64,000 bases of DNA from Gelidibacter salicanalis (GTDB taxonomy: Bacteria > Bacteroidota > Bacteroidia > Flavobacteriales > Flavobacteriaceae), in the NCBI RefSeq assembly GCF_016469035.1, contig NZ_JAEHJZ010000026.1, positions 54,079 to 118,078 on the forward strand, read 5' to 3'. The notes under the pieces were generated by a model. It made no database searches, was not told the DNA's origin, and saw only the letters and a program-made list of their open reading frames with translations. Both the position numbers and the translations under genes were made by a program. This document shows, piece by piece, positions 14,953 through 28,323 of this stretch; within the stretch, counting starts at the first letter, position 1, and the number at the start of each line of letters is the position of its first letter.

Positions 14953-15027
14953 AGGTTAATTCTTGATGGTGCTTATGGAACTTAAGGTTTAAAATTAGGG
15001 AAAAGTTTTAAGGAATTTTTTATTCCC

Positions 15028-15234
15028 TCACAAAACAGAGCATCGGTTGTTCCTGAGTTCCAGTTCCCGATTGTTAAAATCAGAATCTGATATGAATTCA
15101 AAAATCTGTTCTCCATCACTCTTTAGATTGTCTTTACTGAGTTTAACTGCTTCCAGAATTGACCTATTAGGATTGTGTTGTGCTGACGCCAATCCGGTAA
15201 CAAATACTACGATGATAATTATTAAATGTTTCAT
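15028..15234 (-). CDS. Small secreted protein, unknown
   Basis: A 68-residue product starting MKHLIIIIVVFVTGLASAQ, a convincing signal peptide with cleavage after SAQ, leaving a mature peptide of about 50 residues rich in Asn, Arg and acidic residues and ending NNRCSVL. I recognise no family. A longer frame start 34 codons upstream would bury the signal peptide, so I reject it. Confidence 0.45.
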   Translation of the reverse strand: MKHLIIIIVVFVTGLASAQHNPNRSILEAVKLSKDNLKSDGEQIFEFISDSDFNNRELELRNNRCSVL

Positions 15235-15832
15235 AAGGGTTTGATTTAATGATTTATAGTTACAAATATCTCTGAGTAATTCCGATTTTAAAAAAATAGA
15301 TAACTGAGTTGTTGAATTGTAGGACTGAGCTGTCATTGTAAATCAAACCATCCTGCAGCAGCCAATTGCGTATAATAGGTATTTAATCACATAAAAGCTT
15401 GCAAAAAACCAAGGTTACACGTCCTAACTTATCTACTTCTTAAAAATTTAAGAATATCACACTATTTTATGGCTTTTATAATTTAAAAAAGTATATTGTT
15501 GTACCCGTTTATATTTAGAAATATTATTGTCCGATAAAGAATTAAGACCGCTGCGCTTATAGAACAAAGAACAAAGATTTAATTATAACTGACTGATAAA
15601 CAATCGTTATCTACATCAAATCTGCCCAATCACTATTAGTGAAATTGGTCTTGGAAAACAAGGTGTCATTTTTAAGATATCGAACCAGGTCATGCTTTTA
15701 TAGAGTTTGCAAACTTTTTACGTGTTTTACCGGACACTGATGATTTAGAAACAGAACGTACTATATTTTTGATAGAACTCAGCGTCCGTTACTAATTTTA
15801 CCACGACACTTTATAATTAAACACCTTATATA
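15235..15832. other. Intergenic region with a MITE-like repeat
   Basis: Apart from the repeat copy described separately, I see no gene. Just downstream of the repeat an in-frame stretch reading ETERTIFLIELSVRY hints at a decayed coding sequence. The next gene appears to begin with TTG. Confidence 0.4.
15528..15736. repeat. MITE-like element, copy 1 (209 bp)
   Basis: It starts TGTCCGATAAAG and ends TTTTACCGGACA, so its ends are inverted repeats (TGTCCGRTAAA). It matches the element at 28333-28565 along its length with scattered substitutions and small indels. Both copies share TATTAT before and CTG after the element. No transposase is encoded. Confidence 0.6.
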
Positions 15833-16537
15833 TTGAAAGAACACCACCACAAGTGGCACTCGCCAACCCTTAGTAAGGATATAGAAATGCTCGTTTTTGG
15901 ACATGCCGGGTATCCCGTGATACTGTTTCCAACAACCATGGGTAAGCACAATGAATGTAAAGACATGAAACTTATAGAGTCTGTCCGATGGTTTGTTGAA
16001 CAAGGAAAAGTTCAAATTTACTGCCCTGATGGTATTAATGAACTAAGTTGGTATAACAAAAAGATCCATCCGTCGCAACGCGCAAAAAACCACGAATGGT
16101 ACGACCAATTTATTATGAATGAAGTGGTCAATCCTATTTGCCACGAAAAAAACTTACCAAAAGTGGCTGTGGCGGGACCGAGTTTTGGAGGCTATCAAGC
16201 CTCAAATTTTGCGTTTAAGCATCCTGAAAAAGTGAGTCATATGTTTAGTATGAGTGGAGCGTTTGACATCAAATCGTTTGTGGAGGGTCATTATGATAAC
16301 AACGTGTTTTTCAATAATCCCATCGATTTTTTACCCGGAAATAATCATCCTGATTTATGGAAGATGAAAATCATTCTTGGTGTAGGCGAATGGGATATTT
16401 GTTTAGAAGCCAATGAGAAAATGGCACAAATACTCAGAGACAAGAATATCCCCTTTTGGTATGACGTTCGTAAATGGGCAAAACACGATTGGCCGCTATG
16501 GCGGGATATGTTTCCTGAATACCTTTCAAAACTTTAA
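15833..16537 (+). CDS. Alpha/beta-hydrolase esterase of the amidoligase cluster
   Basis: The 234-residue putative esterase has the nucleophile elbow GPSFGGY (Ser117), an Asp candidate in GEWDICLE and a C-terminal His in KHDWPLW. The start appears to be TTG: an in-frame stop lies four codons upstream, and family members I know begin MKEHYHKWYS, matching the codons right after this TTG. It is the first gene of a five-gene set with ATP-grasp, GCS2 and amidotransferase genes, 24 bp before the next. It may hydrolyse or transfer an ester or amide intermediate of that pathway. Confidence 0.8.
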   Translation: MKEHHHKWHSPTLSKDIEMLVFGHAGYPVILFPTTMGKHNECKDMKLIESVRWFVEQGKVQIYCPDGINELSWYNKKIHPSQRAKNHEWYDQFIMNEVVNPICHEKNLPKVAVAGPSFGGYQASNFAFKHPEKVSHMFSMSGAFDIKSFVEGHYDNNVFFNNPIDFLPGNNHPDLWKMKIILGVGEWDICLEANEKMAQILRDKNIPFWYDVRKWAKHDWPLWRDMFPEYLSKL

Positions 16538-16561
16538 AATAGACAAGTAAAATTTATACAT

Positions 16562-17524
16562 ATGAAAAAAATTGGCATCCTATTCGGAAAAGAAAACACA
16601 TTCCCACAGGCCTTTATAGATCGCGTCAACGAAAAGAAAGTAAAAAATATTATGGCTGAAGCCGTTTCTATTGATATGGTAGAACAGGCAAAACCTACAG
16701 ATTACGCCGTGATTATTGACAGAATATCACAGGACGTTCCGTTTTATCGCGCCTATTTAAAAAACGCAGCCATTTCTGGAACGGCCGTGATCAACAATCC
16801 GTTTTGGTGGAGTGCTGACGAAAAATTCTTCAATAATGCCTTGGCAGAAAAAGTAGGTGTTCCTGTACCAAAAACGTTCATTCTACCTTCTTCCCACCGC
16901 CCGCCAGATACTGATGAAAATTCTTTCAGAAATATGAAATTCCCATTTGCTTGGGAACATATGTTCGAGACCATCGGTTTTCCTGCCTATATGAAACCTC
17001 ACGATGGGGGTGGCTGGAAAAGTGTCTATCGCGTTGAAAATTCGCAAGATTTGTGGAAAAAACACGGCGAAACAGAAAATTTGGTGATGATGTTGCAGGA
17101 AGAAATCAATTTTACAGAATATTTTAGATGTTATGTCTTAGATACTGACAACGTACATATCATGCAATATGAACCACGAAATCCGCATCATTTACGCTAC
17201 GTAATTGACGGACCGCCTGTAAAACAAGAGCTCTTAGATTTGATTAAAAAATACTCTATCCGACTGAACAAAGCCTTGGGTTACGACTTTAACACCGTAG
17301 AGTTTGCGGTACGCGACGGCATTCCGTATGCTATTGATTTTTGCAATCCGGCGCCTGATGCTGATGTCAATTCTGTGGGTCAGGATAACTTTGATTGGAT
17401 TGTTGAAAACGCAGCGAATATGGCCATTGCAAAGGCTAAGAAATTCAAGAAAGACAAGATGAACCTCACTTGGGGCACCTTTGTTAAAGACCAAATTACC
17501 GGTAAAAAAACCACCTATAAATAA
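16562..17524 (+). CDS. RimK-like ATP-grasp ligase
   Basis: The 320-residue ATP-grasp protein has VPVPKTFIL near 100, the nucleotide-binding loop MKPHDGGGWKSVY (about 142-154), the LQEEI hinge and the metal site EFAVRDGIPYAIDFCNPAPD (about 246-266). Such enzymes activate a carboxylate as acyl phosphate and couple it to an amine or thiol. The substrate is unknown. It sits between the esterase and the GCS2-type ligase, which suggests stepwise building of an amide-linked metabolite. Confidence 0.82.
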   Translation: MKKIGILFGKENTFPQAFIDRVNEKKVKNIMAEAVSIDMVEQAKPTDYAVIIDRISQDVPFYRAYLKNAAISGTAVINNPFWWSADEKFFNNALAEKVGVPVPKTFILPSSHRPPDTDENSFRNMKFPFAWEHMFETIGFPAYMKPHDGGGWKSVYRVENSQDLWKKHGETENLVMMLQEEINFTEYFRCYVLDTDNVHIMQYEPRNPHHLRYVIDGPPVKQELLDLIKKYSIRLNKALGYDFNTVEFAVRDGIPYAIDFCNPAPDADVNSVGQDNFDWIVENAANMAIAKAKKFKKDKMNLTWGTFVKDQITGKKTTYK

Positions 17525-17606
17525 AGATCACCTGATCTCTGAAGTTTATAGTTTTAAAGATCAAAAGTCAACTTTGCAGTAGTAGTCTAAAAACCAATTG
17601 TAACTT

Positions 17607-18701
17607 ATGAAATTCACCTTAGGCATTGAAGAAGAATACCAAGTCATCTGTCCGAAAACACGAGAATTAATATCCCATGATCAGCAAATTGTATCTGAAG
17701 CCGCCAAGCTCCTAAATGAGCAGGTAAAAGCTGAGATGCACCAGGCTGTTGTGGAAGTTGGCACCAATATCTGTAATGACATCACTGAAGCCCGAACGGA
17801 GCTGACGCACTTGCGAAAGTCTATTTCAGATATTGCAGGCACTTTAGGATTTAAGATTGGCGCAGCGGGCACCCATCCGTTTACAAAATGGGAAACACAA
17901 CTCATGACTCCTAATCCACGCTATGATGAGATTGTAAATGAACTTCAAGATACCGCCCGCTCTAATTTAATCTTTGGCCTTCATGTACATATCGGTATTG
18001 AAGACAAACAATTGGCGTTGCATTTAACCAACGCCATGCGCTATTTCTTACCGCATTTATACGCTTTATCCACCAATTCACCATTTTGGGAAGGCCGAAA
18101 TACAGGTTTTAAATCGTTCCGGTCAAAAATATTTGATAAATTCCCGAGAACAGGCATTCCTGGGGTTTTTCAGACCGTGGCGGAATATGAGCATTATATC
18201 GACATCCTGATTAAAACAAAGTGTATTGACAATCCGAAGAAAATATGGTGGGACATACGCATCCATCCGGTTTTTCCAACGGTTGAAGTGCGTATTTGTG
18301 ACGTGCCAATGACCATTGAAGAAACCTTGAGTATTGCCGCATTAATTCAAGCTTTGGTTGCCAAGTTGCACAAATTAAGAACCCAAAATCTTAATTTTAT
18401 GCTCTACCATCGTGCCTTAATTAATGAGAATAAATGGCGTGCCAGCAGATACGGACTCGATGGCAAAATGATTGATTTTGGCAAGGAATGTGAAGTACCC
18501 ACCAAAGAATTAATGCTCGAATTACTTGAATTTGTTGATGATGTGGTGGATGAGCTCGGATCCCGTAAGGAAATAGAACATATTAAGACTATGTTAGTTA
18601 ACGGAACGGGAGCAGATAGACAACTTGCAGTTTATGAAGACACCAAGGATTTGAATAAAGTGGTCGATTATATTATCGCGCAGACCGTTCTCGGAACTTA
18701 G
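17607..18701 (+). CDS. GCS2/YbdK-type carboxylate-amine ligase
   Basis: The 364-residue protein belongs to the GCS2 glutamate-cysteine-ligase-like family, in the glutamine-synthetase fold. It shows the opening LGIEEEYQV (metal-binding Glu residues 7-9), HVHIGIED (His near 126-128) and WWDIRIHPVFPTVEVRICD. YbdK relatives have weak gamma-glutamylcysteine ligase activity. Here the context (three ATP-grasp genes, an amidotransferase) points to amide ligation on a specialised substrate rather than glutathione synthesis. The amidotransferase gene follows 10 bp downstream. Confidence 0.88.
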   Translation: MKFTLGIEEEYQVICPKTRELISHDQQIVSEAAKLLNEQVKAEMHQAVVEVGTNICNDITEARTELTHLRKSISDIAGTLGFKIGAAGTHPFTKWETQLMTPNPRYDEIVNELQDTARSNLIFGLHVHIGIEDKQLALHLTNAMRYFLPHLYALSTNSPFWEGRNTGFKSFRSKIFDKFPRTGIPGVFQTVAEYEHYIDILIKTKCIDNPKKIWWDIRIHPVFPTVEVRICDVPMTIEETLSIAALIQALVAKLHKLRTQNLNFMLYHRALINENKWRASRYGLDGKMIDFGKECEVPTKELMLELLEFVDDVVDELGSRKEIEHIKTMLVNGTGADRQLAVYEDTKDLNKVVDYIIAQTVLGT

Positions 18702-18711
18702 AAAAATATAC

Positions 18712-19530
18712 ATGCTTAAAGAAAAGATAAAAGTAGCCATTCTCGATATGAACAACAACCAGCCCAACCAAGGCTTGCGTTGTATTGTTGATATTGTGAG
18801 AGGTTTTGAAGATGAAGTTGCGTATACCATATTTAATGTGAGAGGAGCAGATGAATTGCCAGACAGTTCTTATGATATTTATATTTCTAGCGGCGGCCCG
18901 GACAGTCCATTAGAAGATGGCCCATGGCGGATTCCCTATCTGAATTTGGTTCAAGACTTGTGGGATTTCAACAAGACTTCATCAGATCAAAAGAAATATA
19001 TGTTCTTAATTTGCTACTCATTTCAAGTGGTGTGTGATTATTTTAAATTGGGAGAAATGCGGCCAAGACGAAGCACCTCCTTTGGGGTTTTGCCAATTCA
19101 TAAAACAAAAGCGGGATTAACAGACCCTCTTTTAGAAGGCTTGGACGATCCGTTTTACGCTGTAGATTCTAGAGATTGGCAGTTGGTACAACCCAGATTA
19201 AAAGTCTTTAAGGAGCATGGTGCCTCCATTTTAAGCTTAGAAAAACTGCGGAGCCACGTCAGTTATGAACGCGCCATTATGGCGGTGCGGTTTTCTAACG
19301 AATTTGTAGGTACGCAATTTCATCCGGAAGCGGATCCTATCGGAATGAGAGCCCATTTTCTAGCCGACGCCAACAAACACAAAGTCTTTGCCAATTTTGG
19401 CGAAGAAAAATATGATGACATGATGGATAAAATGGACGATCCGGATAAAATCATAAAAACCCATAAAATCATCCTCCCAAAATTTATCGCAAGCGCCATT
19501 AAACAATTGTCACCAGAATTAATCTCATAA
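18712..19530 (+). CDS. Class I glutamine amidotransferase-like protein
   Basis: The 272-residue GATase1 domain has the nucleophile Cys101 in LICYSFQ, the oxyanion region SSGGPDSP near 63 and the dyad HPE (His204, Glu206) in TQFHPEADP. All three catalytic positions are intact, so it should release ammonia from glutamine or hydrolyse a related gamma-glutamyl bond. The synthase partner is not fused and could be one of the neighbouring ligases. A C-terminal extension after about residue 215 is not part of the basic domain. Confidence 0.85.
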   Translation: MLKEKIKVAILDMNNNQPNQGLRCIVDIVRGFEDEVAYTIFNVRGADELPDSSYDIYISSGGPDSPLEDGPWRIPYLNLVQDLWDFNKTSSDQKKYMFLICYSFQVVCDYFKLGEMRPRRSTSFGVLPIHKTKAGLTDPLLEGLDDPFYAVDSRDWQLVQPRLKVFKEHGASILSLEKLRSHVSYERAIMAVRFSNEFVGTQFHPEADPIGMRAHFLADANKHKVFANFGEEKYDDMMDKMDDPDKIIKTHKIILPKFIASAIKQLSPELIS

Positions 19531-19534
19531 CATT

Positions 19535-20734
19535 ATGATTACCTCCCTACGCCAAGCATTCAACGCGCAATTTACTTTAGAAAAATATGCTGGCATGTTG
19601 GCAGATATCAATTCGGAATTCAATTATACAACTAAATTTAAAATCGCAGAAACGCCTGTTTTTATTCCCAAAGTATTAAAACAGCAGTTGATTGAGGCCT
19701 GTGAGGACATCATGAAAGTCATCAATCAGCCTAATTTTAAAGATTTGACTGAAGGTGCGTTTTTTAATGAACGTATGAAAGTACCCAATGAAGATGCGCA
19801 TTCTAAATTTTTACAATTGGATTTTGGGGTGTGTTTAGATGAAAACGGGCAACTCACCCCAAAACTAATCGAACTGCAAGGGTTCCCGTCACTTTACTTT
19901 TTTCAGGAATTGATGGGCAGGATGTATCGCAAACATTACGATTCTATACCTCATGATTTTTCACAACACCTCAACGCACTAACCTCTCAGGAGTATCTTG
20001 AACTGTTACGCACTGAGATTGTTGGAGACGCAGATCCTAAACAGGTTATCCTTTTAGAAATTGAACCGGATAAGCAAGCTACGGCCATCGACTTTTATGC
20101 GACGGAAGCTTTACTAGGAATTAAAGTGTTGTGCATTACCAAACTGATCAAAAGAGGAAAACAATTGTTTTATGTGGACGATAATGGCGAAGAAATTCGA
20201 GTCTTAAAGATTTATAATCGCATCATTTTTGACGAGTTGGACCAACGGCCTGATTTAGACCGGGAATTTGATTTTAAAGACGAGGTGGATATTGAGTGGA
20301 TTGGCCACCCAAATTGGTTTTTCAGAATTAGCAAGTACACGATGCCGTTGTTAAAAGGTGATTATGTACCGAAATCCTATTACTTGGACAAACTCGAAAA
20401 CATCCCGACAGATTTAGAAAATTATGTTTTAAAACCGCTCTATTCTTTCGCGGGTGCTGGCGTTGAAATACATGTTGATAAAGCAATGATTGACGCTGTT
20501 AAAGATAAATCCAATTACCTATTACAAGAAAAAGTAGCCTATGCGCCTATCATCCAAACGATGGATGAACCGGCAAAATGTGAGATTCGTATGATGTTAC
20601 TCCATAACAGCAAAACTAATCAAACTCAGATTGTCAGTAATTTGATGCGACTAAGTAAAGGCGAAATGGTGGGTGTAAAATACAACAAGGATAAAACTTG
20701 GGTTGGTGGCAGCACAGGTTTTTTTGAGCCGTGA
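19535..20734 (+). CDS. ATP-grasp-like protein, possibly circularly permuted
   Basis: The 399-residue protein is not a textbook ATP-grasp, but its C-terminal third has LKPLYSFAGAGVEI (about 298-312, like the nucleotide-binding lysine loop), LQEKVAYAPI, CEIRMMLL and a closing GVKYNKDKTWVGGSTG. An N-terminal ELQGFPSLYFFQ may hold metal ligands. This order fits permuted ATP-grasp peptide ligases. It starts 4 bp after the amidotransferase stop, so it is translationally coupled. Substrate unknown. Confidence 0.65.
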   Translation: MITSLRQAFNAQFTLEKYAGMLADINSEFNYTTKFKIAETPVFIPKVLKQQLIEACEDIMKVINQPNFKDLTEGAFFNERMKVPNEDAHSKFLQLDFGVCLDENGQLTPKLIELQGFPSLYFFQELMGRMYRKHYDSIPHDFSQHLNALTSQEYLELLRTEIVGDADPKQVILLEIEPDKQATAIDFYATEALLGIKVLCITKLIKRGKQLFYVDDNGEEIRVLKIYNRIIFDELDQRPDLDREFDFKDEVDIEWIGHPNWFFRISKYTMPLLKGDYVPKSYYLDKLENIPTDLENYVLKPLYSFAGAGVEIHVDKAMIDAVKDKSNYLLQEKVAYAPIIQTMDEPAKCEIRMMLLHNSKTNQTQIVSNLMRLSKGEMVGVKYNKDKTWVGGSTGFFEP

Positions 20735-20745
20735 GTTGTTTGGAA

Positions 20746-20850
20746 CGATGTTGATTGAACGCTGATAACACAGATTGTTTATGATTTTCACTGATTTACA
20801 AATAGAAATCTGCGAAAATCAGCTAAATCAGCGTCATCCGCGTTCCATCG
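20746..20850. repeat. Long imperfect palindrome (about 105 bp)
   Basis: The left arm (CGATG...GAACGCTGAT...GATTTTCACTGATT) is roughly the reverse complement of the right arm (GAAAATCAGC...ATCCGCGTTC-CATCG). The right arm also resembles the repeated units at 21.5-21.8 kb. It lies directly after the ATP-grasp-like gene and could fold as a long hairpin in RNA. Confidence 0.55.
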
Positions 20851-20890
20851 GATTACAAAGTAAATTCCCTTTTTAAATAGACCACATTAA

Positions 20891-20898
20891 TAATTTTG
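20891..20898 (+). promoter_or_regulatory. -7 element TAATTTTG before the antitoxin
   Basis: An exact TAnnTTTG match, 24 nt upstream of the antitoxin ATG. Confidence 0.45.
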
Positions 20899-20922
20899 TA
20901 TATTAGATTTCAATCTTGTGTG

Positions 20923-21105
20923 ATGATTACAAAGACAAAATTAAAAGAACAGATCGAACATTTACCTGAAGAGTTTACTATTGATGAACTCGTTGAGCGG
21001 TTAATCTTAATTGAAAAAATCGAGAGCGGCTACCAACAGTCTGAAAGCGGGAATTATGTTTCTGAATCTGAGTTAAATAGTGAGCTAGAAAAATGGTTCA
21101 AATAA
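20923..21105 (+). CDS. Putative antitoxin of a RelE/ParE-type module
   Basis: The 60-residue acidic helical protein starts MITKTKLKEQIEHLPEEFTI and ends SELEKWFK. It overlaps the toxin start by 13 bp, the usual arrangement of such modules. I chose the ATG because an upstream TTG of the same frame overlaps the -7 element. Family assignment rests on context. Confidence 0.65.
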   Translation: MITKTKLKEQIEHLPEEFTIDELVERLILIEKIESGYQQSESGNYVSESELNSELEKWFK

Positions 21106-21390
21106 ATTGGACCCATCAAGCTGTAGCTGATTTAAGAGCTGTTTTTGATTACATTTCAAAAGATTCTAACAACTATGCGAAGCTTCAAGTTATAAGAATC
21201 AAGAAACGTACGAAGATTTTACATTCTCAAATTTATTCTGGAAAGATCGTTCCCGAAATAAACAAACAACATACAAGAGAATTAATTGAAGGCAATTATA
21301 GAATTTATTTATAAAGTTGTCAGTCCATCACGGGTAGACATTTTAACCGTCCATCATTCTGCCAGAAATCTCGAGAATAGAATCCTTTAA
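21093..21390 (+). pseudogene. RelE/ParE-family toxin, frameshifted
   Basis: The frame reads WTHQAVADLRAVFDYI...GKIVPEI...TRELIEGNYRI, a clear RelE/ParE plasmid-stabilisation fold, then stops at 21314 after 73 residues. Removing one T from the TTT at 21304-21306 restores the expected ending IYKVVSPSRVDILTVHHSAR and a stop at 21388-21390, giving 98 residues, the normal family length. The toxin is therefore inactivated by a single-base insertion, or the base is a sequencing error. Confidence 0.8.
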
Positions 21391-21416
21391 AAATGAATAC
21401 TCAGTGTTAGAGCGCT

Positions 21417-21436
21417 GCCCGTTTGTTCAGGCGGGC
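21417..21436. repeat. GC-rich short palindromic repeat, divergent copy
   Basis: GCCCGTTTGTTCAGGCGGGC is a diverged, reverse-oriented version of the CCCGCCTGAACGG repeat family, with a GCCCG/CGGGC stem. Confidence 0.55.
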
Positions 21437-21501
21437 AACATAAAGCATTTAAGATTAGAGTTTAAAAAAAACATCAGTAAAAATCATAAACAATCCGCGT
21501 C

Positions 21502-21525
21502 ACCCGCCTGAACGGACGGGCAGGT
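21502..21525. repeat. GC-rich short palindromic repeat
   Basis: ACCCGCCTGAACGG followed by ACGGGCAGGT, identical over 24 bp to 47810-47833. It splits one of the duplicated gene-end units here, so it looks inserted. Confidence 0.7.
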
Positions 21526-21837
21526 CTGTGTTCTATATTACAAACTCTTTTCCGGCGCCGTAATACTCGCTCGGAAATCTATCACATACCATGCGGATTA
21601 GTTATGTTTAATCAAAAAAAATCCAGCGAAAATCAGCCAAATCCGCGTGGTCAGCGTTCTATCCAGAATCACAAACTCTTATCCAATCCCAGAATACTCG
21701 CTCGGAAATCTTTCACAAAATCTTTTCATTATTTTTTAATTTGCTTAATGGTATATACCATGAGGATTAGTTATGTTTTATTAAAAAAAATCCAGCGAAA
21801 ATCAGCCAAATCCGCGTCGTCAGTGTTCTATCCTAAA

Positions 21838-23040
21838 TCACAAACTCCTATCCGGTGCCGGAATACTCGCATGAAAATCCGTCGCTATACGTTGGGTATA
21901 ATCATCCAATAACTCCATCACCCGATCCGCACTCTCAGAAACTACAATCATGCCGATGTGCCATTTCTTATGCATACGCCATGCAATTTCCGGATCATTG
22001 AAACTTGACGTATCAGGATTTTCAAATTTACTTAAGGACACCACGATACCCGCATATTGATTTTTGACTTTAGGCAAGGTATACCCTTCCTTTCTTAAGG
22101 TTGCAGATTCGATACGTGCCCATTCTTCCCACAAGTTGATGCCCGATGCCAACTCCACCATTTCCGCTAAATTGGCCCCTCCCACTCGTGAAGATGTTTC
22201 CAGAAAGAACAATTCGCCCGTGTCTTTAGATTCAATAAACTCCGTATGTGATGCACCAAACTGCATGCCGAAAGCGGTCATGACCTCAGCATTCATTTTT
22301 GTTAAAGCCTTTTCGATTTTAGTGCCAATTTTGCAAGTAGCAGATCTGAAGACACCGCCGCCATGAGCGACTTCAAACGGCGTGTCCAAATATTTGCTCA
22401 CTCTGGAAAATATGACGTTTCCATCAACCGTTAAACTATCTACGTGGTACACATCGCCTGGTGCAAACTTTTCAATTAAATAATTGTCACGTTCGTCTTG
22501 TAGCGCATTGACTATTTGCCAAAGTTCTTCGCGATTGTTGATCTTCTTAATGCCGGTTGCAGAGGCTTCCAAACGCGGTTTGAGGAACCACGGTGGACTC
22601 ACATTATCAGCATAAGCATTGATATCAACATCATTAAAAAGTGCCGTAAACTTAGGTACATTAACCCCTTCTTCCTGCGCTTTCATGCGCATGGCCAGTT
22701 TATCTCTAAAATAATGTGAGGTAGTTCTGCCCATTCCAGGCATTCTGAAATGTTCACGTAAAAGTGCTACTTTTTCTACATCGAAATCATCCAACGCCAC
22801 AAACCGATCAAATTTTATCGTCCTGAATTTATAGGCGATGCCTTTGGTGACATCACTCTGATTCCAATTTTCCACATAAAACACATCATCAATGGCTTCC
22901 CAGGGCCAAACTTCATGTTCCAATTTCTTTTTGGTCAATAAATACACGTTATTACCTTCAGCTTTACAGCTTTTAATAAAATCGGCGCCTTTATGATACG
23001 TAGTAACGCATAGAAAATTGAGTGGTCGTTTTGTGGTCAT
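21838..23040 (-). CDS. ATP-grasp domain ligase
   Basis: The 400-residue ATP-grasp enzyme has an N-terminal pre-ATP-grasp domain (LNFLCVTTYHKGADFI), lid region RDKLAMRMKAQEEGVNVPKF, nucleotide loop FLKPRLEASATGIKKI, the EKFAPGDVYHVDS hinge and metal site TEFIESKDTGELFFLETSSRVGG. It resembles carbamoyl-phosphate-synthase/biotin-carboxylase-like ligases of unknown substrate. It faces the five-gene amidoligase set across the repeat-rich gap and shares a strand with the aminopeptidase and second esterase. The last bases are duplicated downstream. Confidence 0.82.
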   Translation of the reverse strand: MTTKRPLNFLCVTTYHKGADFIKSCKAEGNNVYLLTKKKLEHEVWPWEAIDDVFYVENWNQSDVTKGIAYKFRTIKFDRFVALDDFDVEKVALLREHFRMPGMGRTTSHYFRDKLAMRMKAQEEGVNVPKFTALFNDVDINAYADNVSPPWFLKPRLEASATGIKKINNREELWQIVNALQDERDNYLIEKFAPGDVYHVDSLTVDGNVIFSRVSKYLDTPFEVAHGGGVFRSATCKIGTKIEKALTKMNAEVMTAFGMQFGASHTEFIESKDTGELFFLETSSRVGGANLAEMVELASGINLWEEWARIESATLRKEGYTLPKVKNQYAGIVVSLSKFENPDTSSFNDPEIAWRMHKKWHIGMIVVSESADRVMELLDDYTQRIATDFHASIPAPDRSL

Positions 23041-23102
23041 ATTTTGGTGGAATTTTTAGTGATCAAAGATTTTAAATAAGCTGCCCTACTCAAAATCCTT
23101 AA

Positions 23103-23123
23103 CTGAAGCAACGGTTACTTCAG
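23103..23123. promoter_or_regulatory. 21-bp near-perfect palindrome between LAP and ATP-grasp genes
   Basis: CTGAAGCAAC-G-GTTACTTCAG has 10-bp arms with one mismatch around a central G. No T run follows on either strand, so it looks more like an operator or mRNA hairpin than a terminator. Confidence 0.4.
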
Positions 23124-23155
23124 CTTAATTCTTACACAAAATACAAAATAAACCC

Positions 23156-24568
23156 TTAGTTCTCAGAAATAGATTTGATATAATTCACCATTAATTGCAC
23201 GCCGTAGCCACTAGCACTTTTCATTTTAGCATACTGAGAGTCGCCAAACGATACGCCTGCAATATCCAAATGCATCCATGCCTGATGCTCTTTTGTAAAT
23301 GCCTCTAAAAACTTTGCTGCTGTAGAAGCGCCTGCAATAGGTTTCCCGCTAAAGTTTCTGAGGTCCGCAATGTCGCTATGCAAATCACTATCAAAGTCAG
23401 AAAACAGAGGCAACGGCCATACCCGTTCATTAATTTCAAAACCTATTTTTGAAAGGTCCTGCGCCATCTGAGTATTGTTGGTAAACATGCCCGCAGCCGA
23501 ATAGCCTAGAGTTTGCACCACACTCCCGGTTAAGGTAGCAAGATCAATCACTTGTTTGGGTTGAAATTCCTTGATGATATAATTCAAACCATCTGCTAAG
23601 ACCAAGCGACCTTCAGCGTCTGTATCAATTATTTCAATGGTTTTGCCTGAATAACTATTAATAACATCTCCAGGACGGTAACTATTGCTGTCCACAGCAT
23701 TTTCTGCGGAAGCGACCACCCCAACAACATTGACATTAAGTTTTAATTTGGCGACCAGCTCAACAACACCTAAAACAACAGCGGCGCCACCCATGTCGCT
23801 CTTCATATAATGAAGATTGGTTGAGGGCTTAATTGACAAACCACCCGTATCAAAGGTGATGCCTTTACCTACCAAACCGATATCTACGGCCTTGCCTTTT
23901 TTCGGCATATATTGGGTAACAATAACGACTGGCGGATTAACACTCCCCTGTCCTACGGCCATAACGGCGTGAAACCCTTGTGCTTTAAGTTCTTTTTTAT
24001 GCAACACTGTACACGTATAGTTGGAATCATGCGCCGATGCTTGAGCCCATTGGCCTAAAAACTCGGGCGTTTTTTGGTTCGCTGGAGCATCTACTAAAGT
24101 TTTAATTCTATTAATGGTAGCTCCAATCGCTTGTGATTCTTCGATGAGAGCGGTCACGTCTTTAGAATTTACAATTTCAAATGTAATCGGACTCTCCTGC
24201 TCCTTTTTAGATTTAAAAGTGCCAATAGTATAGGCCGACATTTCTAGACCAATCACCACTTTACGAAGTTCAGCGTCAGAAAAACCTTCTGTGATAAGTT
24301 GAACGGGTTGCTTCCAGTATTTTTTATAATCGAAGCTAAGTTTTCTAAAGGCGTCATCAATTTTAACGGCATCTTTCTCCTCTCCTTGTCCTAATAGATA
24401 TACTCTATTGCCTTCTGCACCGTAAAGCATTTGGACGGTTGAAAATTCGCCATTAAAATCCGGATTCTTGACCGTGATATATTGGCTAAGATGGTCCAAC
24501 TGCCCTTTTCGACATGGCACAATGACGTCTTGATGGATATTGAGTTGGGTAACGTGTTTAAAAATCAT
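23156..24568 (-). CDS. pepA: M17 leucyl aminopeptidase
   Basis: The 470-residue protein has an N-terminal macro-like domain and a C-terminal M17 catalytic domain with the metal/active-site motifs VGKGITFDTGGLSIKP and NSYSGKTIEI-IDTDAEGRL-VLADGL. M17 enzymes are cytosolic hexameric zinc/manganese exopeptidases that remove N-terminal residues. It lies 9 bp behind an esterase gene and ahead of an ATP-grasp gene, so besides housekeeping peptide turnover it could process a product of the amidoligase cluster. I see no signal peptide. Confidence 0.9.
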   Translation of the reverse strand: MIFKHVTQLNIHQDVIVPCRKGQLDHLSQYITVKNPDFNGEFSTVQMLYGAEGNRVYLLGQGEEKDAVKIDDAFRKLSFDYKKYWKQPVQLITEGFSDAELRKVVIGLEMSAYTIGTFKSKKEQESPITFEIVNSKDVTALIEESQAIGATINRIKTLVDAPANQKTPEFLGQWAQASAHDSNYTCTVLHKKELKAQGFHAVMAVGQGSVNPPVVIVTQYMPKKGKAVDIGLVGKGITFDTGGLSIKPSTNLHYMKSDMGGAAVVLGVVELVAKLKLNVNVVGVVASAENAVDSNSYRPGDVINSYSGKTIEIIDTDAEGRLVLADGLNYIIKEFQPKQVIDLATLTGSVVQTLGYSAAGMFTNNTQMAQDLSKIGFEINERVWPLPLFSDFDSDLHSDIADLRNFSGKPIAGASTAAKFLEAFTKEHQAWMHLDIAGVSFGDSQYAKMKSASGYGVQLMVNYIKSISEN

Positions 24569-24577
24569 AGTTTCGAA

Positions 24578-25339
24578 TTAAAAATAAAGCCATTTCACAG
24601 CTTTCGGAAACTCATGTTTCCAATAAATTTCTGCATGCTTTCCTATTTCATTAACTGAAAAATAAAAATCTATCGCATGGTTTTCAACCATTTTTTCTCT
24701 AAAAATAGCTTCAAGTTTTTGGGCATTTGGTAAATGTTCTGCACTCTCATTTCCGCCAGAATACAGATAAATTTTAGACTCCTGTAAAGGTCGAAATGAC
24801 TCCGTTTGATTAAAAATTGTTTTTGCGATCCACAAACTTGGCGAAAAGATCATCATTTTACCAAAAACCCCTGGATTTGACAATCCCGCATGAAGGCTGA
24901 TGAGCCCTCCCAACGAACTCCCACCAATGCCAGTATTTTGAAAATCAGGCAGCGTTCTGTAATTGGTGTTAATGTAAGGAATTAATTTTTCAATGATAAA
25001 CTGAATGTAGAAATTGCCTTTACCCTCACCATATCTAGGATGGTAATACGGCAAATATTCACTGATGCGTTCGTCTTCACCATGATCTATGGCAATAACA
25101 ATAATATCACTCAGGCCCTGCTCTGCTAATTTAGCCAAAGACTGGTCTATAGCCCAATCTCCATAAGGTGACATGGGATTAAATAAGTTCTGCCCATCCT
25201 GCAAATAAAGCACAGGGAAGTGCTTATCCGTCTCATAGTAATTGTAGGGCAACAACGCTGAAATTTTTCTGGTAGCCTGCAAATGCGGGATTTCATAAGC
25301 CTCTTCAAGAACCTTTATAATAGGTTTAAAATCCGTCAT
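24578..25339 (-). CDS. Fes/IroE-like alpha/beta-hydrolase esterase
   Basis: The 253-residue putative esterase (esterase D/Fes family) has LLPYNYYETDKHFPVLYLQDGQN, the nucleophile elbow GGSSLGG (Ser142) and the C-terminal catalytic His in GKHAEIYW. No signal peptide is present, so it is cytosolic. Relatives hydrolyse trilactone siderophores or other esters. A TAATTTTG -7-like element ends only 7 nt before the ATG, so the mRNA may be nearly leaderless. It heads the reverse-strand set with pepA and an ATP-grasp gene. Confidence 0.8.
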   Translation of the reverse strand: MTDFKPIIKVLEEAYEIPHLQATRKISALLPYNYYETDKHFPVLYLQDGQNLFNPMSPYGDWAIDQSLAKLAEQGLSDIIVIAIDHGEDERISEYLPYYHPRYGEGKGNFYIQFIIEKLIPYINTNYRTLPDFQNTGIGGSSLGGLISLHAGLSNPGVFGKMMIFSPSLWIAKTIFNQTESFRPLQESKIYLYSGGNESAEHLPNAQKLEAIFREKMVENHAIDFYFSVNEIGKHAEIYWKHEFPKAVKWLYF

Positions 25340-25562
25340 TGAATGTCAAAATTATTTACGCGCGAAATTACTGTTTTATGGTTTTATAAACTTGGAATTT
25401 ATGATTTTATATTTATCGTGAGTAGATCATTTCGGAACACTTATAGCTGACTAATTAATATTTTAAAGCGGTTTTAGCCATACATAATAGGATACTAATA
25501 TCCTTTAGGTGATATGACATTAGTAGGAATATAGTAAAACTTTGTTAAATCTTTTTTTATTT

Positions 25563-25583
25563 CTAACCAATCGTTTAGTTTTG
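25563..25583 (+). promoter_or_regulatory. TetR-gene promoter and probable self-operator
   Basis: TAGTTTTG (25576-25583) matches TAnnTTTG and lies 18 nt before the TetR ATG. It overlaps an imperfect 16-bp palindrome CTAACCAA/TCGTTTAG (25563-25578), the usual size and place for a TetR-family autorepression site. Confidence 0.45.
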
Positions 25584-25601
25584 TGCAAGAACTAAAAATC
25601 A

Positions 25602-26162
25602 ATGGCACGAAAAAAAGAATATTTAGAAGATGAAGTCATCGAAAAAGCCATGAATCTTTTTTGGCGCTATGGTTATGAAAACACATCCATGCAAATGCTA
25701 GAAAAGGAAATGGGCATTAATAAGTTTTCTATTTACTCTAGTTTTGGCAGTAAACATGGTGTCTTCCTCGAAAGTATAAAGGCATACAAGAGCAAGGTGA
25801 ACGCCATATTTGAAAAATTTAATACTGCGTCTAACGGTGTGGAAGACATCAAACAGTTCTTCTATGATTCTGTTGACATTGGTAAAGAAGGCATGCTAAA
25901 AGGGTGTTTAATAACCAATACGTATTATGAATTTTCAGAGCGTGAAGACGCCTTAATCAATGAACAAATGATTTTGTTTATGGATACTCTAAAAACCACA
26001 TTCATTGAAAAATTAAAAATGGATGTTACTAAAGATGACGCCACAATTTTAAAAGAAGCAAACTTCCTGGTATTGGCAAAACACGGTTTAGCGGCTGCCA
26101 CGAGGGTTAATAGCGAGCAAGAGATTAAAGATTATATAGAAATGACTTTTAAAAACATATAA
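25602..26162 (+). CDS. TetR/AcrR-family transcriptional regulator
   Basis: The 186-residue regulator has the N-terminal TetR helix-turn-helix (about 10-56: AMNLFWRYGYENTSMQMLEKEMGI then KFSIYSSFGSKHGVF) and a helical ligand-binding C-terminal domain. It is upstream of and codirectional with AhpD-like, DsbA-like and HAD genes, which it probably represses until an electrophilic or oxidative ligand binds. That ligand is inferred from the neighbours. Confidence 0.88.
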   Translation: MARKKEYLEDEVIEKAMNLFWRYGYENTSMQMLEKEMGINKFSIYSSFGSKHGVFLESIKAYKSKVNAIFEKFNTASNGVEDIKQFFYDSVDIGKEGMLKGCLITNTYYEFSEREDALINEQMILFMDTLKTTFIEKLKMDVTKDDATILKEANFLVLAKHGLAAATRVNSEQEIKDYIEMTFKNI

Positions 26163-26292
26163 CGGTTTTTTAAGTTCTTTATGAAGGATTGTTTACTCGT
26201 AAAGCTAACAAAGAATCCTCAGTCACCCTTAAAGACAATGCAGTAAATTTCATAGATTTTCACCCGCGTTTAACAACAAACAACTCAACTAA

Positions 26293-26307
26293 AGTTGCGT
26301 TGCAACT
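26293..26307 (+). promoter_or_regulatory. Dyad element upstream of the AhpD-like gene
   Basis: AGTTGC-GTT-GCAACT is a perfect 6-bp inverted repeat, 20 nt before the ATG. It could be a regulator site or a leader hairpin. Confidence 0.3.
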
Positions 26308-26327
26308 AATTATTAAAATTAAAAATT

Positions 26328-26891
26328 ATGACAAGTTTAAAAATTCACAATATCGAGACTGCACCAGAAGGCAGCAAAGCTTTCTTAGAACAATCACAAA
26401 AAGCAAATGGCATGATCCCAGGTCTGCACGGTGTATTGGCAGGATCTCCAGGTCTTCTTGAAGCGTACCAAACGATACATAAATTGTTTACGGATTCTTC
26501 TTTTGATAAAGACGAATTGACCGTGGTGTGGCAAACTATTAACGTAGAACATGCCTGTCATTACTGTGTTCCTGCGCATACTGGAATTGCCAAAATGATG
26601 AAAGTTGACGATGCCATTACAGAAGCGCTTCGCAACGAAACCCCTTTAGAAAACTCAAAGTTAGAAGCATTACGTACCATGACATTAAACCTTGTCCGTA
26701 ATCGCGGACACGTTAGCCCTGAAGAATTAGAGACTTTTTATGCCGCTGGGTACGAAGAAAGACAGGTATTGGATATCATTTTAGGAGTTTCTCAAAAAGT
26801 GATCAGTAATTACACCAATCGTATTGCCAACACACCTGTAGATGCGCCTTTTGAAAAATTTGTGTGGTCTAAAGAAAATCAAGTTTCCTAA
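26328..26891 (+). CDS. Carboxymuconolactone decarboxylase/AhpD-like protein
   Basis: The 187-residue helical protein has the redox motif EHACHYCVPAH (Glu74, Cys77, Cys80, His84), the E-CxxC-H arrangement of AhpD-type peroxidase partners. Such proteins reduce peroxides or accept electrons from thiols. Decarboxylase activity is not implied despite the family name. It follows a TetR regulator and is followed by a DsbA-like oxidoreductase, consistent with a thiol-stress set. Confidence 0.85.
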   Translation: MTSLKIHNIETAPEGSKAFLEQSQKANGMIPGLHGVLAGSPGLLEAYQTIHKLFTDSSFDKDELTVVWQTINVEHACHYCVPAHTGIAKMMKVDDAITEALRNETPLENSKLEALRTMTLNLVRNRGHVSPEELETFYAAGYEERQVLDIILGVSQKVISNYTNRIANTPVDAPFEKFVWSKENQVS

Positions 26892-26910
26892 GATTACAAA
26901 TCACAACAAC

Positions 26911-26939
26911 AAACCTTCCGTTTTAATTACGGAAGGTTT
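26911..26939 (+). terminator. Hairpin between AhpD-like and DsbA-like genes
   Basis: AAACCTTCCGT pairs perfectly with ACGGAAGGTTT over a TTTAATT loop. The following sequence (AATAGTAAAT) has no strong T run, so it may only attenuate transcription or mark mRNA processing. Confidence 0.45.
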
Positions 26940-26962
26940 AATAGTAAATAGACCAAAAAAAC

Positions 26963-27610
26963 ATGAAAGAAAAATTAAAAATAGATATCGTTTCTGATGT
27001 GGTATGTCCGTGGTGTACTATTGGATACAAACGTTTAGAAAAAGCAATTACAGATCTGGGCATTCAAGATCAGGTAGACATTGAATGGCAACCCTTTGAG
27101 TTAAATCCCGACATGCCTGCGGAAGGGCAAAATCTACACGAACATCTCGCCGAAAAATATGGGTCTACTTCAGAACAGCAAATAGCATCACACCAACACA
27201 TGGTTGCTGCAGGTGAAGACGTCGATTTTAAGTTCGATTATTTTGATGACATGCGCATTGTAAACACATTAGACGCTCATATATTATTGGATTACGCCAA
27301 GCAATTCGGAAAGCAAACCGAATTGAAAATGCTGTTGACTAGGGCCTTTTTTAGTGACCGAAAAGATGTATCGGACAGAATGGCTTTAAAACAAATTTTA
27401 TTGGATGCTGGCTTAAATGCTGATGAAGCTTTAACAAAGTTAGAGGATGAAAAGTCCCGTACTGAGGTAAAGAATGCTGAGGAATTTTGGCGTCAATTAG
27501 GCGTCACTTCGGTTCCCACGATTGTCTTTAATAGAAAAAGTGCAGTAACAGGTGCGCAACCTGTTGATGTATTTAAACAAGTTCTGTCTGAACTTATTAA
27601 AGAGTCATAA
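26963..27610 (+). CDS. DsbA-family oxidoreductase (FrnE-like)
   Basis: The 215-residue thioredoxin-fold protein with the active site VVCPWCTIG (Cys15/Cys18) and the cis-Pro loop GVTSVPTIVFN belongs to the cytosolic FrnE-like branch of the DsbA/2-hydroxychromene-2-carboxylate isomerase family. It has no signal peptide, so it acts inside the cell in disulfide or thiol-conjugate chemistry. It is in the TetR-AhpD-DsbA-HAD gene set. Confidence 0.88.
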   Translation: MKEKLKIDIVSDVVCPWCTIGYKRLEKAITDLGIQDQVDIEWQPFELNPDMPAEGQNLHEHLAEKYGSTSEQQIASHQHMVAAGEDVDFKFDYFDDMRIVNTLDAHILLDYAKQFGKQTELKMLLTRAFFSDRKDVSDRMALKQILLDAGLNADEALTKLEDEKSRTEVKNAEEFWRQLGVTSVPTIVFNRKSAVTGAQPVDVFKQVLSELIKES

Positions 27611-27633
27611 CAAGATCATAAAAAAGAATACAT

Positions 27634-28323
27634 ATGTTAGAAAAAACCCGACCTAAAGTTTTATTCTTTGATGTGAATGAAACGCTCTTGGATCTTACTG
27701 AAATGAAAGCTACGGTAAGCACTGCGTTACATGGAAGAGACGATTTACTGTCCTTATGGTTTACCACGATGTTACATTACTCGTTAGTGACCTCCGCTAG
27801 TGGACACTATGAGCATTTTGGACACATTGGCGCAGCTGCTTTACAGATGGTTGCGGCCAATAACGGCATTACCATTTCAGAAAAACACGCGCGGGAAACC
27901 ATTGGAAAATCGCTCAGCGCCTTACCAGCACATCCAGATGTCAAACCTGCTTTGGCCGCATTAAAAGATGCCGGCTACACTTTGGTATCTTTTACAAACT
28001 CCTCCAATCAAGGCGTAAAAAACCAGTTCGAATATGCGGGCCTCACCGATTTTTTTGATGAACGCTTGAGTGTGGAAGATGTTGGAAAATTTAAACCCTT
28101 TTCTGACACCTATGCCTGGGCAGCTCGTAAAATGAATGCAACACCCGAAGAATGTATGCTTATTGCAGCGCATGGTTGGGACGTTGCTGGCGCCTTATGG
28201 GCGGGTTGGCGAGCCGCATTTGTTAGCCGACCAGGACAACAACCATTTCTTTTGGCTCCCCAAACAGAATTGGCAGAGCCTGACTTAAAAAAAATAGCAG
28301 AACATCTAATAGCTTACAAATAA
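27634..28323 (+). CDS. Haloacid dehalogenase, type II-like HAD hydrolase
   Basis: The 229-residue HAD-superfamily protein has nucleophile motif I FFDVNETLLDL (Asp13), motif II SFTNSS, a Lys in GKFKPFSDTY and motif IV LIAAHGWDVAGAL. These match (S)-2-haloacid dehalogenase type II. The real substrate may be a different small acid or phosphate. The stop is 9 bp from the MITE-like repeat. Confidence 0.82.
   Translation: MLEKTRPKVLFFDVNETLLDLTEMKATVSTALHGRDDLLSLWFTTMLHYSLVTSASGHYEHFGHIGAAALQMVAANNGITISEKHARETIGKSLSALPAHPDVKPALAALKDAGYTLVSFTNSSNQGVKNQFEYAGLTDFFDERLSVEDVGKFKPFSDTYAWAARKMNATPEECMLIAAHGWDVAGALWAGWRAAFVSRPGQQPFLLAPQTELAEPDLKKIAEHLIAYK

What the first reader, a model, noticed from the sequence alone, without database searches (positions are those of the whole stretch)
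15833..25339. Facing gene sets for an unknown peptide-like amide: three ATP-grasp enzymes, GCS2 ligase, amidotransferase, two esterases and an aminopeptidase
Seen: esterase, RimK-like ATP-grasp, GCS2, GATase1 and permuted ATP-grasp genes, spaced 24, 82, 10 and 4 bp, then on the facing strand an ATP-grasp gene, pepA and a second esterase. All catalytic motifs look intact. Known: ATP-grasp and GCS2 enzymes form amide bonds, GATase1 supplies ammonia, and comparative surveys of amidoligases report mixed neighbourhoods of these families. Inferred: the cluster makes, modifies and trims a small amide-linked metabolite or a peptide tag. No carrier, precursor peptide or NRPS is seen, and the product is unknown.
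Basis: partly seen in the sequence, partly recalled or inferred. Interest (0 to 1): 0.75.

Follow-up and report, generated by a model that had tools for sequence, protein, structure and literature searches.

The report
Conserved Bacteroidota amide-ligase metabolite pathway
Eight neighbouring genes of a flavobacterium encode four amide-bond-forming enzymes plus peptide- and ester-cutting helpers, and because the key genes travel together across many related bacteria they probably make one small, still unidentified peptide-like molecule.

The parts
15833..16537 (+). est1: PF00756-type alpha/beta hydrolase (234 aa, TTG start as listed)
   Evidence: GPSFGG at residue 115
16562..17524 (+). rimK: RimK-like ATP-grasp ligase (320 aa), the most widespread of the four genes surveyed
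   Evidence: rimK_fam 37 bits, under cut-off; strongly constrained; 128 of 395 genomes after dropping 6 remote hits
17607..18701 (+). gcs2: YbdK-type GCS2 carboxylate-amine ligase (364 aa)
   Evidence: PRK13515 532 bits; YbdK 1r8g E 1e-63
18712..19530 (+). gat: class-I GATase / homoserine-succinyltransferase-like enzyme (272 aa) with CxSxQ elbow, His204, Glu206
19535..20734 (+). cpgrasp: ligase with glutathionylspermidine/glutathione-synthetase fold (399 aa)
21838..23040 (-). grasp3: ATP-grasp ligase closest to L-amino acid (dipeptide) ligases among solved proteins (400 aa)
   Evidence: PDB profile 4wd3 E 1.5e-23
23156..24568 (-). pepA: M17 leucyl aminopeptidase (470 aa)
   Evidence: motifs DTDAEGRL and GKGITFDTGG
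24578..25339 (-). est2: PF00756 esterase (253 aa)
   Evidence: GSSLGG at residue 140

Best explanation
One conserved pathway makes (and trims) a small, peptide-like, amide-linked metabolite. Core: rimK, gcs2 and cpgrasp. Proposed order, inferred: gcs2 (YbdK type) makes a gamma-glutamyl-type amide; rimK adds an amino acid or acid; cpgrasp, which has the fold of glutathione and glutathionylspermidine synthetases, activates the carboxyl end of that peptide as an acyl phosphate and joins it to an amino acid or amine, as glutathione synthetase adds glycine and glutathionylspermidine synthetase adds spermidine. grasp3, an L-amino-acid-ligase relative, supplies a dipeptide unit in some lineages. gat most likely cleaves or transfers a glutamyl group rather than being an obligatory ammonia donor; pepA (or an M29 enzyme) and the two esterases remove residues or protecting esters. 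Shown: families, fold of the cpgrasp model, co-occurrence, shared operons. Inferred: every substrate, the order of steps, the product.
Against: No metabolite or enzyme assay. 16 of 60 fetched and 13 of 80 named cpgrasp loci have none of rimK, gcs2, gat within 8 kb, so linkage is often lost. gcs2 is missing in 5 of 114 cpgrasp genomes and in 9 of 18 rimK genomes without cpgrasp, so a gamma-glutamyl step is not universal. gat is present in 16 of those 18, so it is not tied to gcs2. A fold match at 9-14% identity shows no substrate. Remote gcs2 homologues (36-42% identity) occur in 12 genomes, 11 of them without rimK or cpgrasp. Fisher tests are not corrected for phylogeny. The window genome has bacillithiol-type BshC and a separate glutathione-synthetase-like gene, so a second thiol is not obviously needed.
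Confidence: 0.55

Rival explanations
1. Peptide-amide pathway: gat is a true glutaminase that feeds ammonia to cpgrasp, which caps a short peptide as a terminal amide, comparable in outcome to the osmolyte N-acetylglutaminylglutamine amide.
For: gat lies within 8 kb of cpgrasp in 66 of 80 named loci and also follows the displacing ligase X; PF00117 matches 23 of 23; Cys-His-Glu invariant. ATP-grasp plus class-I GATase is a known pairing in carbamoyl-phosphate synthetase (recalled).
Against: 26 of 52 searched genomes that carry cpgrasp or rimK have no gat; an M29 aminopeptidase lies between gcs2 and cpgrasp in 5 loci; elbow Ser instead of Gly in 103 of 104.
Confidence: 0.2
2. gat is a MetA-like acyltransferase and the esterases undo its product: the metabolite carries an acyl ester as well as amides.
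For: Homoserine O-succinyltransferase model PF04204 matches 4 of 23 gat (best 1.3e-5); PDB 2vdj is the second hit (E 0.0021) and shares an SR stretch with gat; two PF00756 esterases in the module.
Against: PF00117 matches all 23 and its best score is better; no acyl-CoA gene recurs among the neighbours.
Confidence: 0.08
3. Protein modification: the ligases add a peptide tag to a protein and pepA and the esterases remove it.
For: RimK-type enzymes can modify proteins (recalled; also in passages of PMC12239564); PMC4431377 proposes tags for another ATP-grasp clade (passages).
Against: No candidate target protein recurs among close neighbours; cpgrasp, gcs2 and grasp3 are nearest to enzymes of free amino acids and small peptides or of unknown role.
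Confidence: 0.07
4. Independent housekeeping enzymes that lie together by chance.
For: In more distant genomes the genes are often on different contigs.
Against: Even when unlinked they co-occur; shared operons and matching trees.
Confidence: 0.03

Closest known systems
Glutathione synthesis (glutamate-cysteine ligase + glutathione synthetase) and glutathionylspermidine synthetase
   Same: A GCS2 ligase together with a ligase of the glutathione/glutathionylspermidine-synthetase fold
   Different: gcs2 is YbdK type, cpgrasp is 9-14% identical to the solved relatives in the aligned parts and has no Pfam match; extra ligases rimK and grasp3; substrates unknown
YgiC/YjfC of E. coli
   Different: Named only 'putative acid--amine ligase' in the PDB; their gene surroundings were not examined
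Mixed amidoligase neighbourhoods (Iyer et al. 2009, Mol Biosyst 5:1636)
   Same: Several unrelated amide ligases with amidotransferase, peptidase or hydrolase genes (recalled; the paper is not in the library)
   Different: Whether this exact set is listed there could not be checked
N-acetylglutaminylglutamine amide (NAGGN) osmolyte system
   Same: Non-ribosomal short peptide with ATP-grasp ligase, amidotransferase and peptidase (recalled)
   Different: Uses a class-II GATase, a GNAT-ATP-grasp fusion and an M42 peptidase (recalled); none among the eight proteins
L-amino acid ligases (4wd3, BL00235, BacD)
   Same: grasp3 profile matches them best among solved proteins
   Different: Moderate similarity only; sits in a multi-ligase module

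Membership tests
Class-I glutamine amidotransferase (gat) | PF00117 above curated cut-off | tested here: met
   30.3 bits against 22.8; 23 of 23 orthologues match at E<=1
Class-I glutamine amidotransferase (gat) | Cys-His-Glu triad | tested here: met
   C101, H204, E206 invariant in 23 rows and 49 rows
Class-I glutamine amidotransferase (gat) | CxGxQ nucleophile elbow | tested here: not met
   CxSxQ in 103 of 104 distinct sequences; the 3 solved relatives printed have CxGxQ. That the Gly is general in the family is recalled
Glutathionylspermidine/glutathione synthetase superfamily (cpgrasp) | Full-length permuted ATP-grasp fold | tested here: met
Glutathionylspermidine/glutathione synthetase superfamily (cpgrasp) | Match to a curated Pfam or NCBIfam model | tested here: not met
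   0 families at E<=0.001
YbdK-type GCS2 ligase (gcs2) | NCBIfam YbdK/PRK13515 cut-off | tested here: met
   PRK13515 532 bits (cut-off 371), TIGR02050 311 bits (cut-off 176)
RimK family (rimK) | TIGR00768 cut-off 143 bits | tested here: not met
   37 bits; treated as RimK-like ATP-grasp only
L-amino acid ligase (grasp3) | Profile match to solved members | tested here: met
   4wd3 E 1.5e-23, 3vot 2.2e-11, BacD 7e-8
L-amino acid ligase (grasp3) | Dipeptide formation from free amino acids | not testable with these tools
   needs enzyme assay
Glutathione pathway | Uses Glu, Cys, Gly | not testable with these tools
   no substrate data
RiPP/graspetide | Precursor peptide gene beside the ligase | tested here: inconclusive
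   No recurrent small gene, but ORFs under 80 aa were not listed there
Anti-phage defence | PADLOC model match | tested here: not met
   0 of 8 proteins match
NAGGN system | Class-II GATase with GNAT/ATP-grasp ligase | tested here: not met
   No such domains among the eight proteins; definition recalled
Mixed amidoligase neighbourhoods of the 2009 survey | This gene set listed in the survey | not tested
   paper not held

The most novel reading that the evidence does not exclude
Many Bacteroidota make an undescribed gamma-glutamyl peptide or peptidyl-amine cofactor, functionally a counterpart of glutathione or glutathionylspermidine, through gcs2 (gamma-glutamyl ligase), rimK and cpgrasp (synthetase fold), with gat, M17/M29 aminopeptidases and S-acyl or ester hydrolases as its turnover enzymes. 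In the window genome it would stand alongside bacillithiol, and it is spread between families as a cassette.
Probability: 0.17. Interest if true: 0.82.

Novelty: new variant of a known kind. Interest (0 to 1): 0.58.

Why it matters
About three in ten of 395 sampled genomes of a major phylum carry these genes, nearly always in single copy, yet the central ligase has no Pfam or NCBIfam match and the product is unknown. Strong sequence constraint (rimK of 38 named relatives is 59-95% identical to the window's) looks more like a basic metabolite than a fast-changing antibiotic. If the product is a glutathione-like peptide or a peptide-amide solute, it would add a new low-molecular-weight metabolite to bacterial physiology. 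Named carriers include strains of Flavobacterium, Algoriphagus, Spirosoma and Hymenobacter, so knockout and metabolomics are possible, and the answer could bear on the E. coli enzymes YgiC and YjfC.

Tried and rejected
Unrelated housekeeping genes: rejected on co-occurrence. Defence system: no PADLOC match for 8 of 8 proteins. Plasmid-borne: cpgrasp and rimK have no match in the 72,556 plasmid records; the 15 records that match grasp3 do so at 26-31% identity. RNA element: none from Rfam at gathering score in 15000-26000. Bacteroidetes-type promoter pattern (recalled): 6 in the window against 4.7 expected, none just upstream of either set. Extra pathway genes: same-strand neighbours within 200 bp mostly recur within one genus or in three or four scattered loci (for example SDR- and Gfo/Idh-like proteins by eye); the more widespread ones are ligase X, M29 and Amidohydro_3. 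The search for another enzyme in place of gat beside rimK or gcs2 in gat-less genomes gave nothing consistent; a peptidase-S10-looking neighbour of gcs2 in four genomes of one family is by eye only (NCBIfam none). A 332-aa gene before cpgrasp in one family looks by eye like a tryptophanyl-tRNA synthetase. Homology of X and cpgrasp by profile comparison is weak (probability 21%), although X by sequence and cpgrasp by fold both match 3n6x. The PF08886 GshA search in the own genome is uninformative: its controls did not ring either; PF04262 was not searched. No gat model was obtained.

Literature: no title or abstract start listed in searches describes this set. Several of these list only part of their hits (20 of 34, 10 of 33, 12 of 18), the library is open-licence only, and the key survey (Iyer 2009) is not held, so absence from print is not claimed.
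Full report
WHAT IS THERE. The window lies in a Gelidibacter-like genome (closest named relative of cpgrasp: Gelidibacter algens, 88%). Family assignments are: two PF00756 esterases, a RimK-like ATP-grasp that stays under the curated cut-offs, a YbdK-type GCS2 ligase (PRK13515, 532 bits), a PF00117 enzyme, a protein without any Pfam or NCBIfam match (cpgrasp), an ATP-grasp_4 enzyme (grasp3) and an M17 aminopeptidase.

ONE MODULE. cpgrasp was found in 11 of 120 sampled genomes of the family and in 115 of 395 of the phylum, the window's genome included. I dropped one weak, partial hit (G163), leaving 114. rimK was found in 134 of 395; six hits at 38% identity or less were dropped, leaving 128. 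grasp3 was found in 80 of 395. gcs2 was found in 129 of 395; twelve hits at 36-42% identity were dropped, 11 of them in genomes without rimK or cpgrasp, leaving 117 at 47% or more. Cross-tables: cpgrasp and rimK together 110 (cpgrasp only 4, rimK only 18); cpgrasp and gcs2 109 (5 and 8); all three 105; close gcs2 without cpgrasp or rimK 0; grasp3 without rimK 0; cpgrasp and grasp3 66. Fisher p-values run from 2e-80 to 4e-30 but are not corrected for relatedness. Within the window's own family, where presence is patchy, 28 listed genomes have cpgrasp 8, rimK 7, gcs2 8 (further negatives of that family are not listed by the tool). In 20 module-negative genomes of the family neither gat nor gcs2 was found.

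OPERONS. Within 8 kb of cpgrasp: 60 regions - gcs2 38, rimK 35, gat 35, est1 25, est2 21, grasp3 9, pepA 8, none of rimK/gcs2/gat 16; 80 named loci - gat 66, rimK 57, gcs2 52, est1 40, est2 35, grasp3 19, pepA 18, none 13. All eight genes occur together in 8 of 60 and 13 of 80. In L082 and L083 (another family of the order) est2-pepA-grasp3-est1-rimK-gcs2-gat-cpgrasp run on one strand, which joins the two facing sets of the window into one module. Elsewhere est2 is often divergent from est1. est1 and est2 are homologous, so their labels rest on the better HMM score.

INHERITANCE. Trees of 57 rows (the window and the 56 of 80 named loci that hold all three genes) for cpgrasp, rimK and gat each recover a ten-row clade of window-type Flavobacteriaceae with Portibacter (100/97, 99/96, 95/94; in the first two the tenth row is a Chitinophagales MAG, in the third it was not printed) and a 21-row clade (100/100 in each) that unites Flavobacterium with Algoriphagus. 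Patristic distances correlate (0.84-0.90). Two Flavobacteriaceae versions in separate clades, in three genes, suggest transfer of the cassette between families; a species tree was not built and roots are midpoints.

VARIANTS. (a) In 18 genomes with rimK but no cpgrasp, gat is present in 16 and gcs2 in 9. In 8 of the 12 such genomes whose rimK region I fetched, a different permuted ATP-grasp, X, lies beside rimK, in 7 of them with gat following; others may be missed because the simple ORF caller failed on five regions. X is just under the CP_ATPgrasp_2 cut-off (31.6 against 32 bits) and matches a putative glutathionylspermidine synthase, 3n6x (E 1.7e-8). A further esterase (PF00756 in the two tested) follows in five loci and grasp3 in two. 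(b) gat is lacking from 26 of the 52 genomes searched for it; these 52 were chosen because gat or gcs2 was not seen beside cpgrasp, or because cpgrasp or rimK is absent. A close M29 aminopeptidase (60% identity or more) occurs in 7 of 65 genomes searched: 6 of 26 without gat, none of 33 in which gat had been seen, and 1 of 6 not checked for gat. Remote M29 homologues (26-37%) occur besides (16 matches). In five of the six gat-less cases it lies between gcs2 and cpgrasp (L061, L065, L066, L068, L085), in L068 with one extra small ORF. (c) An Amidohydro_3 enzyme (one member tested) adjoins the module in 7 loci. (d) In one genome cpgrasp is fused behind a sodium:solute symporter: L223, 867 aa, SSF at 32-414 and cpgrasp at 475-866; a congener has a similar, shorter reading frame (L224), and another genus of the family has the two genes adjacent (L079).

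THE 'AMIDOTRANSFERASE'. PF00117 matches all 23 gat tested, but the homoserine succinyltransferase model matches 4, the second PDB hit is that enzyme, and the elbow is CxSxQ in 103 of 104 distinct sequences. With the M29 pattern and the many gat-less genomes this favours a glutamyl-group hydrolase or transferase; an ammonia donor remains possible and is listed as a rival. No gat model could be run.

MOST LIKELY MECHANISM. gcs2 (YbdK type), rimK, cpgrasp and, where present, grasp3 (L-amino-acid-ligase relative) act in turn on small substrates; hydrolases finish or recycle the product. Shown here: gene content, predicted fold, co-occurrence, replacement pattern. Inferred: substrates, order, product. 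A protein target or precursor peptide is not supported by any recurrent close neighbour, though ORFs under 80 aa were not listed. The resemblance to a glutathione or glutathionylspermidine route (a GCS2 ligase plus a ligase of synthetase fold, with amino- and ester-hydrolases) is a working analogy, not membership: the enzymes are remote, rimK adds a further ligation, and gcs2 is not universal. The window genome also has BshC and, on another contig, a glutathione-synthetase-like gene beside a QEGLA-motif gene.

LITERATURE. Passages of PMC4431377, PMC12239564, PMC6376114 and PMC2922099 were seen; they treat other ATP-grasp systems, and two of them (PMC12239564, PMC6376114) were seen to cite the 2009 amidoligase survey, which is not held. 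In ten searches no listed title or abstract start describes this set. Whether the 2009 survey lists it could not be checked, hence 'new variant of a known kind'.

Noticed in passing
window 20923-21390: Between the two gene sets lies what looks by eye like the remnant of a small type II toxin-antitoxin pair (ParE/RelE-like reading frame split between two frames) with short direct repeats in the same gap; no family search was run on it.
   Followed up: partly
L223:3637-6237 and L079:8793-11369: cpgrasp is fused to, or adjacent to, a sodium:solute symporter (PF00474) in one family, a hint at the kind of substrate or product.
   Followed up: partly
L061, L065, L066, L068, L085: An M29-type metallo-aminopeptidase lies between gcs2 and cpgrasp where other genomes have gat.
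   Followed up: yes
L182, L183, L184, L190, L194, L196, L198, L200: A second permuted ATP-grasp (X, close to CP_ATPgrasp_2) lies beside rimK in genomes without cpgrasp.
   Followed up: yes
L251:3814-7533 (window genome, contig C401): Another amide-ligase run in the same genome: a gene with a weak N-formylglutamate-deformylase match, a QEGLA-motif gene and a glutathione-synthetase-like PRK12458 gene.
   Followed up: partly
L073, L091-L093, L098-L100: An amidohydrolase (PF07969 in the member tested) adjoins cpgrasp or lies between gcs2 and gat.
   Followed up: no
window 25602-28323: Downstream of est2 a TetR regulator (PF00440), then genes that by eye look like a carboxymuconolactone-decarboxylase-type, a DsbA-like and a haloacid-dehalogenase-like protein. 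Of the 60 fetched regions only L042 shows the TetR gene near cpgrasp; the named loci were not searched for it.
   Followed up: no
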